Shown here piece after piece: positions 4,069 through 31,700 of a stretch of 42,920 bases of DNA; positions within the stretch are counted from its first letter, which is position 1; each line of letters starts with the position of its first letter. The stretch is taken from the IMG/VR virus record IMGVR_UViG_3300020312_000213, positions 1-42,920 of that record. One strand, written 5' to 3'. The position numbers and the translations under genes are program-made. This DNA is from a virus. Under the pieces are notes generated by a model. The model was given only the letters and a program-made list of their open reading frames with translations, searched no databases and had not been told where the DNA came from.

Positions 4069-4742
4069 TTAAAGATACCTCCAATCCAATTAGTGAACAT
4101 TACCCAAAGAGATTTACGAGCACTGCCCTGAATCTCATCAAACATATTCATGTTTAATTTGAACGCATAGTTTGCTTCTGCAATTATAGCATCTATTTGT
4201 GATTGATCAAGTTCTAACGCATCTAATGATGCACGATACTGATTCTTATACTCTTTAGCATCTTCTATCTTATCAAAATCATAGAAGTGTAACCCTTCAC
4301 CCTCTGGTAATGTTAATGCCTTCTCTGCTATACCTTTGAGTATTTGTCCTCCTGATAGATCACCAATGTATCTGGTATAATGATGACCAATCAACAACAT
4401 CTTGTCATTTACCTCACGTATGCGATTAACATATTGTTGACCTGCAACAGTTGTTGTTACAATGGATCTCCAATTTGGTCCATAATAATACCTGAGATCT
4501 CTCTCAAGTGCATTTGTCCTGTATAATACAGGATCATCAATTACAGCAACAGCAGGATCATCATGATGTTTACTGATCTCCTCCTCCATTGCTCTATAAA
4601 CAAAGAAGAAGTTAGCAATGAGTTTGCGATACTCTTCAGGATCAAGTACACCTCTAAGGAATGACGCAACAAACTTAGTATTCTCTGCTGCGGAGTGTGA
4701 CTTCTTAGTTCCTGTTTTTAATTGCTTTGACAGTGGTTCCAT
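4065..4742 (-). CDS. ho1: heme oxygenase
   Basis: The 225-residue protein is a classic biliverdin-forming heme oxygenase, close to the length of cyanobacterial Ho1. The proximal heme ligand is H16 in KKSHSAAEN. The distal-helix signature is YTRYIGDLSGGQIL. The family opens heme to biliverdin IXalpha using ferredoxin, giving iron and CO. In marine cyanophages ho1 is a known auxiliary gene, often near bilin reductases, but none (pebS, pcyA) is in this window. It lies in a run of small phage genes and overlaps the upstream gene by 25 nt. Confidence 0.95.
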   Translation of the reverse strand: MEPLSKQLKTGTKKSHSAAENTKFVASFLRGVLDPEEYRKLIANFFFVYRAMEEEISKHHDDPAVAVIDDPVLYRTNALERDLRYYYGPNWRSIVTTTVAGQQYVNRIREVNDKMLLIGHHYTRYIGDLSGGQILKGIAEKALTLPEGEGLHFYDFDKIEDAKEYKNQYRASLDALELDQSQIDAIIAEANYAFKLNMNMFDEIQGSARKSLWVMFTNWIGGIFK

Positions 4743-5023
4743 TGTTTGAATAAGTTTAATTGTTCTGGTGCATTTGCATCCTGATATGGAGACTCACGAT
4801 GCCTAACGTACTTTAGTTCACTCCAATACTGATTGTTGCATAATAACAAACAGTGAATCATTTTGTGACGATCATTTTTGGCATGCTCACAATATGGTTT
4901 GGGTTTAACATGAACTTCTATAGTGATATACTCATCACATTTGAAGTAAACCCATCCCTTCTCAACTCCATACTCACCTTTGTCCCAAATAACATAATCG
5001 TCAACCTCTGGTTCATAACTCAT
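4718..5023 (-). CDS. hypothetical phage protein, 101 aa
   Basis: This is a soluble protein with many aromatic and charged residues and several Cys/His positions (YCEHAKNDRHKMIHC, then LLLC). These could bind metal, but the spacing matches no motif I know. It overlaps ho1 by 25 nt downstream and the next gene by ATGA upstream, which suggests coupled translation with ho1. Confidence 0.7.
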   Translation of the reverse strand: MSYEPEVDDYVIWDKGEYGVEKGWVYFKCDEYITIEVHVKPKPYCEHAKNDRHKMIHCLLLCNNQYWSELKYVRHRESPYQDANAPEQLNLFKQWNHCQSN

Positions 5024-5226
5024 AAATCCTCAATAGTTAAATCGTTTATGAATAACCAATTATCTGGACAGTCTTCATCATCTACCACAAATTCACTATG
5101 CAGTGCGTCTGCATCATCTAATCTGTCACTTGCTACTAACTCCATGCACGTTGCCATGAAGAATTCTTCCACATGCTCAATGCACTTCTCATGTCTTATC
5201 TGACTTCTGATGTTGATTTCATCCAT
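5020..5226 (-). CDS. hypothetical acidic protein, 68 aa
   Basis: This is a small acidic helical protein (MDEINIRSQI start) with no recognised domain. It is coupled by ATGA to the 101-residue gene downstream. About 27 nt separate it from the 78-residue gene upstream. Confidence 0.65.
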   Translation of the reverse strand: MDEINIRSQIRHEKCIEHVEEFFMATCMELVASDRLDDADALHSEFVVDDEDCPDNWLFINDLTIEDL

Positions 5227-5253
5227 AATGAGATCCCAAAAGTAACATAGTAT

Positions 5254-5490
5254 CTATGTCATAAATGATGACACGATACCAACATCCTCAGACTCATCAA
5301 GTTTAAGACGCACTGCATTTTTGATCTTAGGCATGATACGATTCACATGGTCATCCTCATACCCATCATTCAAATCAAGACATAAATCAAAACACTGTTG
5401 GTCACTCTCAGCAACCACATTAATCTGACCACCGTACTCAGACTGTGGGAATGGAACCCAGTAGTCTACAATATACAGATACTTATCCAT
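5254..5490 (-). CDS. hypothetical protein, 78 aa
   Basis: I place the start at the ATG at 5490 (MDKYLYIVDYW). The longer in-frame start at 5610 would read through the terminator hairpin at 5522-5552. The protein begins with beta strands and aromatic residues, then is acidic. No family is recognised. It is the first gene after that terminator; no clear promoter is visible between them. Confidence 0.65.
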   Translation of the reverse strand: MDKYLYIVDYWVPFPQSEYGGQINVVAESDQQCFDLCLDLNDGYEDDHVNRIMPKIKNAVRLKLDESEDVGIVSSFMT

Positions 5491-23778: not shown

Positions 23779-24959
23779 GTTTTCATAGTAGCAACTACAG
23801 GTTCACCATCAACAAAAGCAGTCTCATAAACGCTCTGTAAACGGCGAGAAGTTTGTATACCTACATTGTTACTGTAGGTAGGAACAACGATGTTCCCAAA
23901 CTGTTTATCAGGTGCAGGGCGAAGAACCCTACCAACAGACTGACACATCTCAATGACATTCATATTCCTAAGAAGAATAAGAGATGTCAAACCTGGAACA
24001 GAGATACCCTCACTCAAGATTGAGTAGTGAAGAAGTACAAACTTCTTATTGGGATCTTGTCCATACTCCTTCATGGTATCGAAGAAGTCATCTCTTGATA
24101 CTTTTTTGTTGTTAATAAAAGCACCATGCTTTGCAGTGATCCAAAAGAGATCATAACCCAACCATTTGAGTTGAGAACAAAACTCTGTCTCACTGAGCAT
24201 CCTCATTAACACCTTAGTGTTAGGAGCAGCAACTAGAACCTTCTCCATGTGATCTTCATTTGTGATCTGATCTAAGAGAGTTTGACAATCAAGATGATGG
24301 TCACCCTTTTCTCTAGGAACAGGAATCTTCACAGTTTTGATCTCTGGTGGAAGAATAGAACCAGACTTAACTAACCTTGGTGCAGGTACATTGTAGATAA
24401 TCCCACCAAAGAGATTATCATTCATTCCAGTCCTCTTAGGAGTACTGCTAAACTTAGGAGTAGCAGTAAAGAAATAGCACCCACCATTAACTCTAGTTGC
24501 AAAAAATCTAACAGCAGGGTAAAAATTTCTTTGAACACTGTTGTGTGCCTCATCAAAGTATATGGCATCTACATGAATACCTGACTCCTGTATCTTATGT
24601 AAAGAATGGTAGGTAGTGAAGAGTATCCTATGCTGCTTACGGAAGTAGTAGCAGAATGTAGAGATCTTATCAGGTTTAGTGGTTGAATGGTAATTACCAG
24701 AATCACCACTATGAACATGTAGAACACATGCATCAATAATATGCTCAGTAAACTCTGAACACAACTGATTAGCAAGAAGTAGTCTAGGAGCAACAACTAC
24801 AATGGTCTTATGACCAAGGAGTGAAGGTCGTCTAAACAAATTCTTGGCATGCTCTATGGCAATCATCGTCTTACCACCACCAGTGGGGACACAAATGATT
24901 CCCTTACGCTTATGACGCATAACGTCAAGTGCTTCTTTTTGGTGTGTACGAAGTTCCAT
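23775..24959 (-). CDS. SF2 helicase (DEAH type)
   Basis: The 394-residue protein has all main SF2 motifs: Q-like LRTHQKEA, Walker A PTGGGKT (25-31), DEAH (136-139), TATP, and motif VI QSVGRVLRP. It resembles UvsW/RadD-like phage helicases but lacks their extra N-terminal domain, so I give no symbol. A role in DNA branch processing or in the neighbouring restriction-like unit is possible. It has its own extended -10 promoter (24967-24975) and follows the methyltransferase gene by 29 nt. Confidence 0.9.
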   Translation of the reverse strand: MELRTHQKEALDVMRHKRKGIICVPTGGGKTMIAIEHAKNLFRRPSLLGHKTIVVVAPRLLLANQLCSEFTEHIIDACVLHVHSGDSGNYHSTTKPDKISTFCYYFRKQHRILFTTYHSLHKIQESGIHVDAIYFDEAHNSVQRNFYPAVRFFATRVNGGCYFFTATPKFSSTPKRTGMNDNLFGGIIYNVPAPRLVKSGSILPPEIKTVKIPVPREKGDHHLDCQTLLDQITNEDHMEKVLVAAPNTKVLMRMLSETEFCSQLKWLGYDLFWITAKHGAFINNKKVSRDDFFDTMKEYGQDPNKKFVLLHYSILSEGISVPGLTSLILLRNMNVIEMCQSVGRVLRPAPDKQFGNIVVPTYSNNVGIQTSRRLQSVYETAFVDGEPVVATMKT

Positions 24960-24966
24960 AATGTAT

Positions 24967-24975
24967 ATTATACCA
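24967..24975 (-). promoter_or_regulatory. extended -10 promoter (TGGTATAAT)
   Basis: The minus strand reads TATGGTATAATATACATT, with TGn directly before a perfect TATAAT, 8 nt upstream of the helicase ATG. The short distance would give a nearly leaderless mRNA. No good -35 is needed for extended -10 promoters. Confidence 0.55.
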
Positions 24976-24988
24976 TACTATTAGAAGG

Positions 24989-25405
24989 TCACTCGAAGAA
25001 CTGGTCTAATGTTACATCTCCTTCAGTTCCATCGAAACGATAATGATATTCCAACGCATCAGCACAAACATAATGAGGGTGATCTACAGATACACCTAGT
25101 CTTTTACACATCTCACTATGATTATCTTCCATAAATTCTACAGCATACAACATGTTATTAAGAACATGCTCTCTACTGTGATACCTCATCAATACCTTCT
25201 TCAACTGAACAATAAAATTACCATTACCTGCTGCATTATCTAAGAAGGTAGAAGTTGGATCTTTAAGAACACTCTCAGGTAAACCAAGAATCATCTTGTC
25301 ACATAAAGATGGTGGAGTGAATACTTCTCCAGTGTTCAATATCCTATCATCACTCCTAGTGATGTCAGATCCATACTTCTGATTGTGTCTATTCTTAGAG
25401 GACAT
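24989..25405 (-). CDS. SAM-binding part of a split adenine methyltransferase, 138 aa
   Basis: The protein holds methyltransferase motifs in the order X (TGEVFTPPSLCDKMI, 25-39), I (FLDNAAGNGNF, 54-64), II (YAVEFMEDN, 87-95) and III (CADALEY, 114-120), then stops. The catalytic NPPY motif is absent here and lies in the ORF just upstream. Read in gene order, the pair runs IV...TRD then X-I-II-III, the circularly permuted order of beta-class enzymes. It overlaps the catalytic ORF by 11 nt and has no clear ribosome site, so translation is probably coupled. Confidence 0.8.
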   Translation of the reverse strand: MSSKNRHNQKYGSDITRSDDRILNTGEVFTPPSLCDKMILGLPESVLKDPTSTFLDNAAGNGNFIVQLKKVLMRYHSREHVLNNMLYAVEFMEDNHSEMCKRLGVSVDHPHYVCADALEYHYRFDGTEGDVTLDQFFE

Positions 25406-26690
25406 TATTAGTCACCAGATAAGCAACTTCCTCTTCAGTAAAGTTGAACTGAGTATCTAGATCATCATAATCTGTAATATCAGGTACTTCTCCATTCTTA
25501 ACCGCAGCAGCGAATCCACCAGTTCTCTTATACTTATCAATGTATAACTGAATCAAAGGATGCCCAAAGATCTCAGATAATCTCTCACCTTCTTCTTCAT
25601 CTACAATAGGACACCATGCATTAAGCATACCAATATGTGCATTGGTTATAAATCTCTTCTTATATGAAGTAGAGTATGGTACAACAAACTTCAATACATC
25701 ACTAGTCTCAGGTTTTACATTAGTCTTCCAAGGATTATTACCTGAATGTAAGACTTCATACTCACCATCAGTACAATAATCTTCAGTAGCAATCGCTTGA
25801 CCCATCTTCAATGGGATACGTGGATGATTAGAGTTAGCAATCTTATTCAAAATAGAAGTCTCTAATGCTTTATCACCCCATACTGGTACACCATCACGAA
25901 GATCCCAATCAAACTCACAATCATCTGTAATAACTCTAGTCTTACCCTGATATGGTTCTTTAGTTAGATGCCAACTACAAATTTTTATTCCTTGAGTAAA
26001 GTGTTGGTCTGCTGTATAATCAATCTCCTTTAAATTATAAATCGTAGAGCAAAGTTTAAGGAACTTCTTACCAAACCCAGTAGTACCAATAAATGATGCA
26101 GGACAAACCTCACATAGATCACCACCATCCTCTAACATGTCAACATGCTGCAATAGGAACTTATTCCATTGCTTATTATTCTTTGCTTTACTGGTTGGAT
26201 CTTGATAAGGGGGATTAGCAAGAATCGCTGTTGGACGTAACACTGGTTTTTTGTGAGTTAGGGTGACGTTCTTGTCAATATATTCTACCCTATTTCTATG
26301 GTTAGCACAATCATCCCAGACTGTCAATCCATAAACATTAACATTCTTTTCCAACAACCTAGCAGTATGAGAACCGCTTGGATCGGAGTGTATAAGGGTC
26401 TGTGAGGTGTCTTTTAATTTACTAATCATTGGATCAAGAAGAATTAAAGGGATGGTCTGCTGGATGGCAGAGGACACTGAGAGGATATCTAATGTCTTAG
26501 TTACCGACTCTCTCATACTTGTTATGATAGTCTTAGACTCTGTACCAATACGACGTGTAAGTTTCTCTCTGCTATTGTGATTAGCATCTATAACATCAGA
26601 GAGTATACCCTCAGTATCACCACTAATATCACTATAGATTGGTGATTTTAAGATATCATCTATAGTATTAACATTCTTACCTTCCTTCAA
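25395..26690 (-). CDS. N6-adenine methyltransferase catalytic/TRD ORF, probably entered by -1 frameshift
   Basis: The ORF has motif IV ANPPYQ (158-163), a following LEDGGDLCEVCPASFI strand typical of Eco57I-like enzymes, and a C-terminal half that looks like a target recognition domain (GQAIATEDYCTDGEYEV). A degenerate SDPSGSHTARLL...VYGL block at 102-121 may be a decayed motif I. The only start that could open it is a TTG at 26690 with no ribosome site; the first internal ATG is at about residue 59. The frame is open upstream to the slippery site at 26768. A -1 shift there would fuse it to the upstream helicase (~1053 residues in total). Confidence 0.8.
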   Translation of the reverse strand: MKEGKNVNTIDDILKSPIYSDISGDTEGILSDVIDANHNSREKLTRRIGTESKTIITSMRESVTKTLDILSVSSAIQQTIPLILLDPMISKLKDTSQTLIHSDPSGSHTARLLEKNVNVYGLTVWDDCANHRNRVEYIDKNVTLTHKKPVLRPTAILANPPYQDPTSKAKNNKQWNKFLLQHVDMLEDGGDLCEVCPASFIGTTGFGKKFLKLCSTIYNLKEIDYTADQHFTQGIKICSWHLTKEPYQGKTRVITDDCEFDWDLRDGVPVWGDKALETSILNKIANSNHPRIPLKMGQAIATEDYCTDGEYEVLHSGNNPWKTNVKPETSDVLKFVVPYSTSYKKRFITNAHIGMLNAWCPIVDEEEGERLSEIFGHPLIQLYIDKYKRTGGFAAAVKNGEVPDITDYDDLDTQFNFTEEEVAYLVTNNVL

Positions 26691-26695
26691 GATAT

Positions 26696-26721
26696 AAAAA
26701 ACACAAAGAGGTAAACTCTTT
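26696..26721 (-). terminator. weak terminator-like hairpin between helicase and methyltransferase ORFs
   Basis: AAAGAG/CTCTTT stem with a 5-nt loop, then GTG and six T. The stem is A/T-rich, so termination would be weak. It may act as an attenuator or as a second RNA structure near the frameshift site. Confidence 0.25.
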
Positions 26722-26728
26722 AAAATTG

Positions 26729-26789
26729 CCCTAACTACTTTCTTCTTTAAAGCGTTAGGGTCTGGTTCTTTTTTACAGATTCAACCTCC
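26729..26789 (-). promoter_or_regulatory. candidate -1 programmed frameshift signal
   Basis: In order on the mRNA: GGAGG (26785-26789), 10 nt, the in-phase slippery heptamer A AAA AAG (26768-26774, zero frame GTA AAA AAG), a 7-nt spacer, and the perfect 7-bp stem CCCTAAC/GTTAGGG (26754-26760 with 26729-26735) with an 18-nt loop that can add a 4-bp CTTT/AAAG helix. This is the same three-part layout as the Escherichia coli dnaX -1 site. After the shift the frame stays open into the methyltransferase ORF. Confidence 0.7.
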
Positions 26790-28555
26790 GCTTTATAACC
26801 ACTCTCACTATTCATACTCTCATCACCTACTACTGCCGTCTTTAATACCCTTGATGAAACATTATCTGTAGCAAAAGTACTTATATTGTAGTTAAAATCA
26901 ACGTCATCTAGATTCAAAATTGACTCTAAACTTTCCATTGTAGACATAGTAGAATCAATATCAGTAGATAGAATACTATCAAATTCTTCCTGTGTTATAT
27001 CCCTAAAACCATCTTCATAACCGTTAAGATCCATAAACTGAACCTCATGATAGTTTCTCAACTCAGGATTATTATCACATGCTAACTGGAACGCAGTATT
27101 CATTGCTTTAAGAGCACGTTTACCATTAAAGTCAATCACCCACCAATCGTGTTTACCTGATCCTCCACGGAAGGCAAACTGAGTCCAGAACTCAAGAGAT
27201 TCACCACCCTTACAATTGATAATAGTATCAATCTTCTCATTGGTAAATCCTAATACATTTGCAGATTGAGTAAGAATAAGTGCTTTTGGATTTGATTCGA
27301 TAAACTTATTAATTTCCCTTGCCTTATTTTTAGTATCACTAGTAACAACTAGAGTAGGATAATAACACTCAACAATTTTTTTAAACTCATGGCATGCTGC
27401 TATGCTAGATAGTGCCATCATAATAAATCTTCCTTGCAGCATCTTCTGCTTCAATCCAATCTTTCTTTGTGGACCTTTAGGACTAAAGATATCAAAAGCA
27501 AAGTCAGTAGGAAGTTGTGGATTTAAAAACTTACCAGTCTCTTTATCTATCAGGAATATATTATTAATTGAATCAGGATCATTACCAAAAATCTTACGAT
27601 ATGCAGGTGTCTGATATACTCTTATTACTGGTTTCATTCTAGGACGTTTAAACAGTCCCTTTCTTACATCTAGTTGCTCATCAAAATAAGTATATACAAA
27701 CTTATTATCATCATTAAAATCCCATACTATGCTGTAAGCAGTACCAGATACATAAAGTGTCTTAGTATTATACCTCTCTTTAAGTTCAATAAACTCTTTT
27801 GCTGTAGAACCTATATGACACTCATCAGCAACAAGTAAATCTGGTTGGGGTATCTCACGATTCATTAATGATTGTACAGATGCCCATAGAACAATATTAA
27901 CTGGACGTTCCATCCAAAATTCTAATTCCTGTTCCCAATTCTTATCCTTAACTGAAATATATCTAATAGTTGGGAAGAAGTCACGAGAATCATCCTTCCA
28001 TGATTGCTCTGGTGAATTAAATCTAGAACATACAACAGTCAACTTATAATCCCAATCCACAATATGCTTAAGAGTCATTATAGACTTACCTGCACGACAC
28101 TTTGCAAACAATAAAAACTGTTGATGACCAGATTTCCATGCTTTAGATATCTTATTTAAAAAGTTCGTTTGATATGGGTATGGATTAAATGTCTTCCATG
28201 TTTTCTTTGCACCAGAGAAGAATTTCTCATGAATCATTTGAACTACCATTGGCACACTAATAATATTCTCATCAACCTCAAAAGTCTCTCTACCAATCGC
28301 CGTAACACCAGGTATATCTTTCTTCAAAAAATCATGTACAACATGATCTTGATGACTTATATCCAAATCTCCATCAGGTCTTGTAGACTGATTCTCCCAG
28401 ACTCTCAACGGGATGCGTTCACCATCATATACATCTATAACTTGATTTGCTTTACCATAATCACCATCTTTATGTCTCTTCTCATATGATCGTGTAGTCT
28501 CACCAAATCCAAACCTATGGGGTTTGTGTTTGTATCCATCACAATAAAAATGCAT
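26747..28555 (-). CDS. restriction-type nuclease-helicase (GIY-YIG-like domain plus SF2 helicase)
   Basis: The protein has 602 residues from the ATG at 28555. Residues ~14-95 resemble a T5orf172/GIY-YIG-type nuclease: FGFGETTRSYEKR with the key Arg, a VVHDFLKK helix, and ETFEV supplying the Glu. The SF2 core follows, with Walker A CRAGKS (153-158), DECH (244-247), SGTAYS (270-275) and motif VI QFAFRGGSG (459-467). The C-terminal ~120 residues may be a coupler. This is the layout of a restriction subunit. The stop follows a slippery site that would join it to the methyltransferase. The nuclease call is the least certain part. Confidence 0.8.
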   Translation of the reverse strand: MHFYCDGYKHKPHRFGFGETTRSYEKRHKDGDYGKANQVIDVYDGERIPLRVWENQSTRPDGDLDISHQDHVVHDFLKKDIPGVTAIGRETFEVDENIISVPMVVQMIHEKFFSGAKKTWKTFNPYPYQTNFLNKISKAWKSGHQQFLLFAKCRAGKSIMTLKHIVDWDYKLTVVCSRFNSPEQSWKDDSRDFFPTIRYISVKDKNWEQELEFWMERPVNIVLWASVQSLMNREIPQPDLLVADECHIGSTAKEFIELKERYNTKTLYVSGTAYSIVWDFNDDNKFVYTYFDEQLDVRKGLFKRPRMKPVIRVYQTPAYRKIFGNDPDSINNIFLIDKETGKFLNPQLPTDFAFDIFSPKGPQRKIGLKQKMLQGRFIMMALSSIAACHEFKKIVECYYPTLVVTSDTKNKAREINKFIESNPKALILTQSANVLGFTNEKIDTIINCKGGESLEFWTQFAFRGGSGKHDWWVIDFNGKRALKAMNTAFQLACDNNPELRNYHEVQFMDLNGYEDGFRDITQEEFDSILSTDIDSTMSTMESLESILNLDDVDFNYNISTFATDNVSSRVLKTAVVGDESMNSESGYKAEVESVKKNQTLTL

Positions 28556-28576
28556 CAATTTAAATTCACTGAACCT

Positions 28577-28582
28577 ATTTTA
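28577..28582 (-). promoter_or_regulatory. putative promoter -10 (TGGTAAAAT)
   Basis: The minus strand reads TTTTATGGTAAAATAGGTTCA, an extended -10 (TGG then TAAAAT), directly after a terminator and 22 nt before the ATG of the nuclease-helicase. The layout and sequence resemble the terminator-promoter junction at 36-72. Confidence 0.5.
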
Positions 28583-28726
28583 CCATAAAAAAAACCCCTT
28601 GATAGGGGTTTGTGACGGATCGTAATCTGGATCGTAGTCTGGTTCTCTTGGATCAATCCGTGAATCCCACCAAAAGAACTGACATTGATCTAGACGCATA
28701 TGAACTAATGGTTTATTTAATTTCAT
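28580..28726 (-). CDS. 48-aa protein reading through the terminator
   Basis: The ORF (MKLNKPLVHMRLD start) overlaps the tail fibre stop by ATGA. It is Trp/Phe-rich, then acidic (DPREPDYDPDYDPSQ). Its last codons cross the whole terminator hairpin and its stop lies in the next promoter -10. It is probably co-translated with the fibre. Function unknown. Confidence 0.58.
   Translation of the reverse strand: MKLNKPLVHMRLDQCQFFWWDSRIDPREPDYDPDYDPSQTPIKGFFLW
28587..28611 (-). terminator. rho-independent terminator of the tail fibre operon
   Basis: AAACCCC/GGGGTTT stem, TATCAA-type loop and a run of eight T on the minus strand. It separates the late tail fibre transcript from the restriction-like unit. 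Confidence 0.9.
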
Positions 28727-31700
28727 TTTGCCTCCAGTACATTTAATCTATCCTTTAATTCTATGATTTGTAATTGCTGTTCCTTGACTGCTTCAATTAA
28801 AAGAGCAACCATATTCTGATATGCAACTGACTTCAGTTTACTATCAGGATGTTCTTGTACAAGTTCTGGAAGAACCTTCTCAACCTCTTGTGCAATCAAT
28901 CCCATCTCAAGAGCATCATTAGACTTACGTCTGTAATTTACACCACGTAATGACTGAACTGTACTTAGAGCATGTGGAATAGTCTCAACATTATACTTGA
29001 TACTTTCATCAGATGTAACTGTGATTGTACCAGTAGAAGTTATGTTACCATTTGCAGCAATTCTAAGTCTCTCTGCTGGTGCAGATGGACCTGTCTCCAT
29101 TGTACCAAAGGTAATACCAAACTGTCCAGATGATCCTTCAGATACACCACGGATATATCCTCTCTCACCACTGTTACCAGTATCGTAACCTTCCCACTTA
29201 ATACCACCATACTCATATGAAGCATTAAGGATCGTATCAGTCTGAACAAATCTTAAGAAGTTACCCTTAGTATCTCCAGTAGTCTCTGGGTTAGTGGTAA
29301 TAAGAACGTCTGCTTGATGAGTTGAGACACCAACTGTTCTAAACGTATTAGCATTAAGTTGCTGATTAAAGGTAGTAATACCAGTATTAATCAACCAACC
29401 ATCAGGTACATTCCAAAGAACAGAATCCATCCTGAACTCAACAGTGTTCTCGAATAGAACTGCACCAGCAGCATATAAAGAGTAACCTGGTTTTGCCTGA
29501 GAAGTTTCAATACCAACCTGTGCTGTGGTAGATATACCAACACCATCAAATACCCAAACGTCAGATACGTTTGTTAACTGTGAACCATCTCCTTTGAATG
29601 ATCCACTAAAGATACCAACATAAGCACCATCTGGTTTTGCTTGGATTGGACCAAACTTCATCCAGTTGTTATCATCAGTGTATACCCAACCAGCAGTACC
29701 ACCTGAAGATGGTTCTGAATCGAAGGTTACATCACCTACGTTACCAGCAGTAATAGGAGTTGATACACCAACAGTATACTGTCTAGCAATTGTTTCATCA
29801 CCTTGGATGAATAAACTATTTGCTTCAACAGGAGCGTTAGTAGTAACCTTCTTATTAAAGACTACAGGACCATTGAACTCAGAGATAATATTCTTATCCT
29901 TACCACCATCAACCTTTATTCCTCGGTTAACAGTTAGTTGGTCAGTATCCTCTACATCAAATCCAATAGCGTTTGTATTAGATGTAAGGTCTTCACCTGT
30001 AACTGTTGGTACTGGTGCTCCAGTAATTAAGTCTTGTCCACTAGATCCACTAGTAAACTTGTTAACAGTGTATTGGTTACCTTGGTCATCTAAACCATTA
30101 TAGAATGGTGTACCACCATTATCTGATACAGACTGTGATAATATCCTCTCTACATTCTTAAAGTCTCTATCCTGTCTGGATGGTAATGCAGTGGAGTAGT
30201 TACCTGGCCCATATCCAAGATATTCAAATGTGTGACCTGATGCACGAATAATTGAGTTACGTCTAAATTCAATCGGTTTGAACTTAACTCTCCTAATCTG
30301 AGATCCAATTGGGTGACTCTGTTTTTGAGTACCAAATAGACCACGGAATACATCAATCGTTGTATCCTGAACAACAGTCTCACTAATTCTCATTATCTCA
30401 TTATCAACAATGAGGTAATCTCCAACATTCCAGTTATAATTCAGAGCATTAGAGACTGTCAGTGTATTGATAGTTGGGTCTGTTAATGCAACAGTAATTG
30501 ATGTAGTAATACCTGCATACTGTGGGGATAATCTAGGAGATGCAAATTCATTAGCAGGATCAATAGTAGCAGCTTGAGCAGTATATCCTGTTGGATATAA
30601 TGACCATCCAGTTCCAGTTGGGGTTACTGCCTGAGTACCCACACCAATATTAATTCCAAATGAATTAACTCCATAGATCTCAGTAACGTCAAATACACCA
30701 TTGAATAATTCTTGATCAAATCCAATAATTCTTGCACTATTATTGGTTAATAGACCGTGTGCATAATTGGTAACAGCACTTGCAATACCAGTAGTATTAT
30801 TATAAGTCAGTGAAGTAATACCAACCACCTCACCAGTTACATAGGATGTAACGTCAGACAGAATAGTATTATTAATATTAGTCAGACCATTAGTATTGAC
30901 ACCTGTTATTGCCGTCTCACCTATAAATTGGTAATTAGCATATACCGTTGATGCTGAAGATACATTTACCTTCTTAGTTTCACCAACAGGAACACTAGTT
31001 ACTCTATAAAGTTGGTTATAATCTTCAAATACACTATCTCGAATACCCTCAACCTTCAAGATCTCGTTGGTACTATCATGTATTCTTGTTACCTCAACAA
31101 CACCCTGTTGCCATCCAGTTGTAGTAGCAACACCAACAACAGCAAGTGTATTACCAATACCATATGCAGAACCACCATCAATAATCTTAACGGCAGTAAT
31201 CTGACCAGTAGGATTAATCTTAATGTTTGCAGTAGCATGGTCACCTGTTACCGAGGTTCCAATACCAACTAATCGAGCATTATAAAGAGTCTGAATAGAT
31301 CCAGATCCATCTCCATATCCAAAACCAGCACTAGATATTGCAACAACATTAATTCTATTAAGGTTGTGATCTAGTTCTGTAGTTAAGGTATGAGCAGTAC
31401 CAGTATGAGATTCAATCTCAACAATTCCAACACCAACCTCAAAGTCTCTAATATTTTTATTAACAACCTCTTTTGTAATACTATTTCTAGGATCGTTTAC
31501 ATCAGTTAAACCAATCGGTGTTGGTAGAGAGAATGTCCTAGTCTGATCAGGATCAGAATTTGGATTATCTCGATCTAACTGAGGGTAAAGATTCTGAATA
31601 GGTTGTGAGAACCTCATCTCATCGAATGGTTCTACACTAGGACTATTAGAAGCATCAATTAGAGTTAAGTGATAAACACCATCCTTGACGTTTGCCTTAT

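What the first reader, a model, noticed from the sequence alone, without database searches (positions are those of the whole stretch)
24989..28555. Phage-borne restriction-modification-like unit with a permuted, split methyltransferase
Gene order is GIY-YIG-like nuclease plus SF2 helicase, then methyltransferase motif IV and target recognition region, then a separate 138-residue protein with motifs X, I, II and III. This is the motif order of beta-class enzymes, but split between two genes and fused (by frameshift) to a translocase. The total resembles a type ISP enzyme with the SAM-binding lobe cut off. It sits on its own promoter after a terminator, so it looks like an inserted cassette. It could defend against rival phages, degrade host DNA, or mark phage DNA. 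I know of no described system with this layout.
Basis: partly seen in the sequence, partly recalled or inferred. Interest (0 to 1): 0.85.

Follow-up and report, generated by a model that had tools for sequence, protein, structure and literature searches.

The report
Frameshift-coded phage restriction-modification-like enzyme
A marine T4-like phage gene uses a conserved ribosomal 'slip' signal, of the kind known from dnaX, to make both a short nuclease-motor protein and a longer version fused to a DNA methyltransferase, next to a separate small SAM-binding subunit; I found no earlier report of a restriction-modification-like enzyme made this way.

Summary
The three reading frames exist as described. 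At the break lies an in-phase A AAA AAG heptamer with GGAGG 10 nt upstream and a hairpin 7 nt downstream: a dnaX-type -1 frameshift cassette. It is present in every sampled member of the clade (19/19 contigs found with a pattern that did not ask for it). The downstream coding phase has flipped at least 3-4 times by indels just after the site, and in either phase one frame gives a short nuclease-helicase and the other the full fusion. Codons at the site are nearly frozen, the stem shows compensatory changes, and the -1-frame region is under purifying selection. A sequencing error or pseudogene is very unlikely. The fusion is domain-collinear with type ISP enzymes (best structural match LlaBIII), but its N-domain looks GIY-YIG-like, not Mrr. 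The 'SAM lobe cut off' reading is only partly right: the catalytic chain keeps a complete Rossmann fold with a variant motif I (GDPSGSHT), while the 138-aa protein is a second, canonical SAM-binding half, paired across T4-like phages with very different catalytic chains and sometimes fused to them in permuted order. New variant of a known kind; activity untested.

The parts
28592..28611 (-). intrinsic terminator after the tail-fibre gene (AAACCCCTATCAAGGGGTTT + T run)
   Evidence: sequence
26747..28555 (-). ORF-A, zero-frame product (602 aa from ATG 28555; TTG 28558 possible): GIY-YIG-like N-domain + SF2 helicase/translocase; ends 7 codons after the slip site at TAA 26749-26747
28210..28555 (-). 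N-terminal GIY-YIG-like (T5orf172/MUG113-type) domain; invariant Y, G-x-T, R, D-x3-H, E-x-F
   Evidence: weak Pfam hits in relatives; b-b-a-b-a topology
26785..26789 (-). internal Shine-Dalgarno-like GGAGG, 10 nt before the slippery heptamer
26768..26774 (-). slippery heptamer A AAA AAG, in phase for -1 frameshifting
26729..26760 (-). frameshift-stimulating hairpin (CCCUAAC..GUUAGGG), starts 7 nt after the heptamer
25395..26768 (-). ORF-B in the -1 frame (457 codons after the slip; conventional ORF starts TTG 26690): HsdM-like helical domain, MTase core with variant motif I, NPPY, TRD; fusion product with ORF-A = 1053 aa
26364..26384 (-). variant motif I DPSGSHT in ORF-B (one residue shorter than D-x3-G, no GxG)
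26205..26216 (-). catalytic motif IV NPPY
24989..25405 (-). ORF-C = S subunit (138 aa): motifs X (EVFTP 25327-25313), I (FLDNAAGNGNF 25246-25214), II, III; stand-alone SAM-binding half; overlaps ORF-B by 11 nt

Best explanation
It is a phage-encoded ATP-dependent restriction-modification-like enzyme, built like a type ISP enzyme, whose motor gene is decoded by a dnaX-type -1 programmed ribosomal frameshift. About 596 codons in, ribosomes meet GGAGG-N10-A AAA AAG-N7-hairpin. Those that stay in frame stop 7 codons later and make a nuclease-translocase (R-like). Those that slip back one base continue and make a 1053-aa nuclease-translocase-methyltransferase-TRD fusion (R-M-like). The next gene, overlapping by 11 nt, supplies a 138-aa canonical SAM-binding half (S) that pairs with the catalytic chain. 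The long form plus S would recognise and methylate sites (probably N6-adenine, NPPY). The short form would supply extra nuclease/motor protomers for two-strand cleavage of unmethylated DNA, either of the host or of rival phages. Shown here: the conserved frameshift signal, both reading phases, selection on both parts, the domain architecture, and the C-S pairing and natural C-S fusions. Inferred: slippage efficiency, the assembly, the role of S in the window's own enzyme, nuclease and methylation activity, and the biological target.
For: Frameshift: the heptamer is in phase, with GGAGG 10 nt upstream and a stem 7 nt downstream; it is the only in-phase A AAA AAG among 65 Lys-Lys pairs in the window's minus-strand ORFs. 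All four frame-broken groups break exactly there, and intact relatives keep the site with immediate tandem stops in -1. 19 of 19 contigs found by a downstream-only pattern carry GGAG + A AAA AAG. Synonymous codon identity is 0.89 at the site against 0.58 overall; the wobble A is kept when Val becomes Ala, and the G of GGAG when the codon is Ala, Arg or Met. Stem: 96% of cells paired against 15-42% when slid, 3 pairs with two-sided changes; hairpin z -1.3 to -4.2. Phase changes 4 times on the tree, 3 forced. dN/dS of the -1-frame part is 0.06-0.12 in the best-sampled group, and no ATG or SD supports reinitiation. Architecture: Foldseek LlaBIII E 6e-16 over 1026 columns; VIA helicase RadD Z 21.4, MTase CamA Z 19.3, HsdM/PacII Z 18.6. 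S: conserved in 44 loci, CamA 9-189 Z 11.6, next to a C gene almost everywhere; single-chain C-S proteins L115 and ZPAH1.
Against: No experiment; slippage efficiency and products are unmeasured, and the host and its lysine tRNAs are unknown. Several clade members encode the fusion in one frame, so the long form does not always need slippage. More distant relatives (L037, L060, L067, L071, L093, MA01) lack the heptamer or use separate overlapping genes (S-CAM7, ACG-2014f). dN/dS between the window and L032 is higher (0.34 in C, 0.43 in A). ORF-B has its own Rossmann lobe, so S may not be its SAM donor. GIY-YIG assignment rests on weak hits (0.0068, 0.064) and a conserved pattern; its acid is D, not E. 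Stem covariation comes from two main groups, so the sequences are not independent.
Confidence: 0.7

Rival explanations
1. The frame break is a sequencing or assembly error, or a decaying pseudogene; the real gene is one frame (fusion) or dead.
For: The break sits at a run of A, a classic error site; close relatives L034 and L007 are intact.
Against: The same break position occurs in four groups from independent assemblies; the -1 frame is open over 457 codons with dN/dS 0.06-0.12 in the best-sampled group; site codons are frozen; phase differences between relatives come from indels after the A-run.
Confidence: 0.05
2. Translational coupling: the short product terminates and ribosomes reinitiate to make ORF-B as a separate subunit, without a fusion.
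For: The stop of ORF-A lies close to ORF-B; in S-CAM7 and ACG-2014f the corresponding genes are separate and overlap.
Against: There is no start codon with SD in the -1 frame near the stop: in the window only TTG, 78 nt after the slip and without SD. GGAG has no start codon at initiation distance, yet keeps exact spacing to the heptamer.
Confidence: 0.07
3. Transcriptional slippage on the A-run, not ribosomal frameshifting, makes the two products.
For: It would give the same protein products; known for dnaX of Thermus (PMC5009743).
Against: The run has only 6 A (9 A/T in the examples named in PMC5009743); conservation of GGAG and of a hairpin at fixed spacing is the signature of ribosomal frameshifting.
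Confidence: 0.08
4. S is not the SAM donor of the window's enzyme: ORF-B binds SAM in its own lobe (GDPSGSHT) and S is an accessory or regulatory half-methyltransferase in the complex.
For: Complete Rossmann core in the fusion model; GDPxGxHS is conserved in many long C proteins, and S-CAM7 0809CC03 gp55 even has DPAMGGG.
Against: Minimal C proteins begin at NPPY and still pair with S; single-chain C-S proteins have only the S lobe; the loop in ORF-B is a residue short and lacks GxG.
Confidence: 0.3
5. One reading: one methyltransferase cut into two genes, with the catalytic ORF lacking a SAM lobe.
For: True for minimal pairs such as P-SSM2 gp36/gp37 and L092-L105.
Against: In the window's ORF-B the lobe is present in variant form.
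Confidence: 0.1

Closest known systems
Type ISP restriction-modification enzymes LlaBIII / LlaGI (PDB 4xqk, 5ffj)
   Same: Domain order nuclease - SF2 helicase - helical/coupler region - adenine MTase - TRD; Foldseek best match over 1026 columns.
   Different: GIY-YIG-like N-domain instead of Mrr; motor and MTase joined by a programmed -1 frameshift; variant motif I plus separate S subunit; carried by a phage.
Bacterial dnaX -1 programmed ribosomal frameshifting
   Same: A AAA AAG, upstream SD-like element at about 10 nt, downstream hairpin, short and long products sharing the N-part; role reversal of zero and -1 frames is reported for dnaX (PMC5009743).
   Different: Gene product is a nuclease-translocase-methyltransferase; both polarities occur repeatedly within one phage gene clade.
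Split/permuted N6-adenine MTases of T4-like phages (PHROG 4376/21201 + 3689/5172/11371), e.g. P-SSM2 gp36-37, Klebsiella PKO111 gp114-115, Aeromonas ZPAH1 orf67
   Same: Same S subunit and NPPY catalytic chain, order C then S as in beta-class MTases.
   Different: Mostly no helicase/nuclease and no frameshift; annotated 'hypothetical' or 'DNA methyltransferase' without note of the split.
CamA (C. difficile adenine MTase) and M.TaqI
   Same: Fold of both halves: ORF-B region to CamA 5-577 Z 19.3, S to CamA 9-189 Z 11.6.
   Different: Single-chain gamma-class enzymes with canonical motif I.
Synechococcus phage MA01 WVQ00382 / S-CAM7 gp055-056 'type II restriction-modification system restriction subunit'
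   Same: Homologous nuclease-helicase (36%) and C (43%) with S nearby.
   Different: Encoded in one frame (MA01) or as separate genes (S-CAM7); no A AAA AAG cassette noted there.

Membership tests
dnaX-type -1 programmed ribosomal frameshift | slippery X XXY YYZ heptamer in the zero frame, upstream of the zero-frame stop | tested here: met
   A AAA AAG 26774-26768, in phase, 7 codons before the stop
dnaX-type -1 programmed ribosomal frameshift | SD-like stimulator about 10-14 nt upstream | tested here: met
   GGAGG, 10 nt; GGAG at the same spacing in 15 of 16 haplotypes
dnaX-type -1 programmed ribosomal frameshift | stable hairpin about 5-9 nt downstream | tested here: met
   7 nt in all frame-broken haplotypes, 8 or 11 nt in intact ones; pair support and z-scores
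dnaX-type -1 programmed ribosomal frameshift | evolutionary conservation beyond coding need | tested here: met
dnaX-type -1 programmed ribosomal frameshift | measured frameshifting and two protein products | not testable with these tools
   needs reporter assay or proteomics
Type ISP restriction-modification enzyme | nuclease-SF2 helicase-coupler-MTase-TRD order in one chain | tested here: met
   order met in intact relative L034; in the window only through frameshifting
Type ISP restriction-modification enzyme | N-terminal Mrr-family nuclease | tested here: inconclusive
   no Mrr hit; conserved pattern resembles GIY-YIG
Type ISP restriction-modification enzyme | canonical SAM motif I in the same chain | tested here: not met
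   GDPSGSHT variant; canonical motif I lies on S
Type ISP restriction-modification enzyme | ATP-dependent translocation, cleavage, single-strand methylation | not testable with these tools
   biochemistry needed
Split, permuted (beta-order) N6-adenine MTase | one polypeptide with motifs X, I, II, III and no motif IV | tested here: met
   S:
Split, permuted (beta-order) N6-adenine MTase | partner with motif IV and TRD, lacking its own SAM lobe | tested here: not met
   ORF-B has its own variant lobe; met only in minimal relatives
Split, permuted (beta-order) N6-adenine MTase | single-chain homologue joining the two parts in that order | tested here: met
   L115 448 aa; ZPAH1 orf67 387 aa
GIY-YIG nuclease domain | b-b-a-b-a core with conserved Tyr, Gly, Arg and acid | tested here: inconclusive
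   pattern Y..G-x-T..R..D-x3-H..E-x-F invariant or nearly so; Pfam MUG113 0.0068 and GIY-YIG 0.064 in single relatives only; no PDB sequence hit

The most novel reading that the evidence does not exclude
A restriction-modification-like machine whose R : R-M subunit ratio is set by near-50% programmed frameshifting, so that the coding phase downstream of the slip can flip by single-base indels without losing either product, and which draws its SAM-binding half from a stand-alone subunit shared, as one interchangeable part, by many different catalytic chains across T4-like phages.
Probability: 0.55. Interest if true: 0.9.

Novelty: new variant of a known kind. Interest (0 to 1): 0.8.

Why it matters
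Known phage frameshift genes are mainly tail-assembly chaperones; a frameshift that sets the ratio of motor-nuclease to motor-nuclease-methyltransferase would be a new way to tune restriction against modification, a long-standing question for R-M systems (how self-cleavage is avoided). The repeated phase flips give a natural experiment for frameshift efficiency, since a tolerated flip suggests comparable output from both frames. The S subunit, found with very different catalytic chains (minimal, pseudo-lobed, GIY-YIG-fused, helicase-fused), makes the modular evolution and permutation of DNA methyltransferases directly testable in widespread marine phages. Genes in these phages now labelled 'hypothetical' gain a specific, testable role.

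Tried and rejected
Inserted-cassette idea: no promoter excess and the same slot holds other C-S versions, so treated as a variable locus. Rfam: no hit in 24900-28800. PDB sequence search for the N-domain: no credible hit. No natural C-S fusion among the 80 best IMG/VR loci; fusions were found only with the genome collection and Aeromonas phages. PADLOC and NCBIfam give only fragmentary MTase or type IIG hits. VIA second look does not cover residues 1-118 of the fusion, so no fold claim is made there. I did not build a C-S chimera for folding (only unaltered locus proteins allowed). Literature searches for frameshifting with restriction-modification, cyanophage frameshifting, and split or permuted MTases in phages returned nothing that describes this; PMC3711429 and PMC5009743 were searched for restriction and methyltransferase terms and hold no such case in the passages shown. 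The library is open-access only. PMC10885494 mentions 'methyltransferases' in a list of genes known to contain frameshifts without detail that I could follow.
Full report
WHAT IS THERE. The window is an IMG/VR virus record of 42,920 bases with T4-like cyanophage content: baseplate hub/lysozyme, a 1947-aa tail fibre, transaldolase, and a UvsW-like helicase next door. PHROG 22930 runs across the break: profile 13-574 matches ORF-A and 603-689 matches the start of ORF-B. So the break splits one ancestral chain, and ORF-B continues into a methyltransferase (PHROG 3689).

THE FRAME BREAK IS A PROGRAMMED FRAMESHIFT SITE. The break lies at GGAGG-10 nt-A AAA AAG-7 nt-hairpin, the layout of E. coli dnaX. 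Four groups of relatives break at exactly this heptamer with the zero-frame stop 0-7 codons later: window/L031, L032, L046/L047/L050, L049/L056. Relatives that encode the fusion in one frame (L034, L007, L035, L039, L044, L045, L061, L062) keep the heptamer in the same phase, and there a -1 slip hits tandem stops at once (V** or D**). Either way one frame gives the short nuclease-helicase and the other the fusion. The phase changes 4 times on a tree of the C part, 3 forced by well-supported branches. The alignment shows that the phase differences come from indels just after the heptamer, not in the A-run.

CONTROLS. In the window's minus-strand ORFs 1 of 65 Lys-Lys pairs is an in-phase A AAA AAG, and it is this one. 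In 17 clade genomes 16 of 22 such heptamers sit at this site, among 356 Lys-Lys pairs. A search that specified only downstream coding sequence returned 19 contigs with 11 distinct junctions, and all 19 carry GGAG and A AAA AAG. Synonymous codon identity is 0.89 around the site against 0.58 overall; among the highest windows listed, the others lie mostly in the first ~150 codons. GTA/GCA-AAA-AAG is invariant in codon choice even where Val becomes Ala, and GGAG is kept where its first G is the third base of Ala, Arg or Met codons. The stem has 96% of cells paired (15-42% when slid), three pairs with two-sided changes; RNAalifold finds the same stem unaided; single hairpins have z from -1.3 to -4.2. 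The -1-frame part has no stops, and dN/dS is 0.06-0.12 in the best-sampled frame-broken group (0.34 for the more diverged pair window/L032). There is no start codon with SD that could explain separate expression. Window and L031/L005 are distinct genomes, 99.47% identical with 82 mismatches in 17.8 kb. Caveat: the clade is modest (about 16 haplotypes in two main groups).

WHAT THE PROTEINS ARE. The AlphaFold2 model of the intact relative L034 (mean pLDDT 73.9) has LlaBIII, a type ISP enzyme, as best Foldseek match over 1026 columns. By VIA-align the motor (122-545) is closest to RadD (Z 21.4) and 687-1019 to CamA (Z 19.3, rmsd 3.0, 211 aligned); the helical region plus MTase (535-897) also matches the M subunit of PacII (Z 18.6). 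The slip site therefore separates an R-like part from an M-TRD-like part. The N-domain keeps Y, G-x-T, R, D-x3-H and E-x-F in all or nearly all of 12 relatives and has a b-b-a-b-a order. This fits GIY-YIG/T5orf172-type nucleases, but profile support is weak, so it is called GIY-YIG-like only.

THE SEPARATE SAM HALF. S carries motifs X, I, II and III with 28 invariant positions in 44 loci, folds as half a Rossmann domain (pLDDT 84.7) and matches CamA 9-189 (Z 11.6). At least 394 relatives exist in IMG/VR. Among 80 examined, S is always its own 132-165-aa ORF and mostly follows, with a short overlap, a gene with NPPY. That partner varies: minimal chains starting at NPPY (P-SSM2 gp36, L092, L104), chains with a degenerate or variant lobe (GDPxGxHS), and full fusions. 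In one bacterial contig (L115) and in Aeromonas phages ZPAH1 and Aswh_1 the two parts are one chain in the order IV-TRD-X-I-II-III: L115 is 29% identical to the Ah1 catalytic chain (E 7e-22) and 42% to the window's S (3e-18). So C and S are halves of one permuted methyltransferase in those systems. In the window, however, ORF-B keeps its own b1-b3 lobe, with DPSGSHT one residue short and lacking GxG. Whether S displaces it or acts beside it is open; I favour S as SAM donor at about 0.6.

MECHANISM. Shown: signal, conservation, both frames, selection, architecture, pairing. Inferred: ribosomes slip at a substantial rate (tolerated phase flips suggest comparable outputs, as argued for dnaX, where both polarities are reported; PMC5009743); the short R-like form and the long R-M form plus S assemble into an ATP-dependent restriction-modification-like complex. 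Host-genome attack, exclusion of rival phages and protection of phage DNA are not separable here.

COMPARISON AND NOVELTY. It works like a type ISP enzyme but is not filed as one, because the canonical motif I in the chain is absent and the nuclease family is unproven. The frameshift meets every sequence criterion of the dnaX type. No paper in the searched open-access library describes frameshifting in a restriction-modification enzyme. Verdict: new variant of a known kind, high interest, activity untested.

Noticed in passing
L051-L059, around 4150-5414: Same slot (tail-fibre gene / S / UvsW-like helicase) holds only a minimal NPPY chain (279-284 aa) plus S: an orphan methyltransferase version without the motor.
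   Followed up: partly
L115:1975-2697: A 240-aa ORF directly upstream of the single-chain C-S methyltransferase in the rumen Paludibacteraceae contig; possibly its cognate restriction enzyme, no Pfam hit.
   Followed up: no
L120 (Prevotella phage Lak-B6) 2033-3403 and 4487-4936: Lak megaphages carry a C-like NPPY gene (456 aa) and, about 1.1 kb downstream, an S-like ORF; the record is unannotated.
   Followed up: no
L023 and L028, upstream of S (e.g. Klebsiella PKO111 gp114, Shigella PSD9 ORF103): N-terminal region that looks GIY-YIG-like fused to an NPPF catalytic half, with S as the next gene: possible compact nuclease-methyltransferase in Tevenvirinae.
   Followed up: no
many C proteins, e.g. 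window 26384-26364: Conserved GDPxGxH[ST] loop in the lobe before NPPY, a variant of motif I kept across distant phages; function unexplained.
   Followed up: partly
L113 (PAHT02000089.1): Contig binned as a Rhodobacteraceae MAG carries an 88% identical S gene followed by a 397-aa ORF where related phages have the UvsW-like helicase; probably a phage contig misbinned.
   Followed up: no
L018 4478-8047 (ACG-2014f Syn7803C24): S lies before, not after, the nuclease-helicase and C genes, so order is not fixed in all phages.
   Followed up: no
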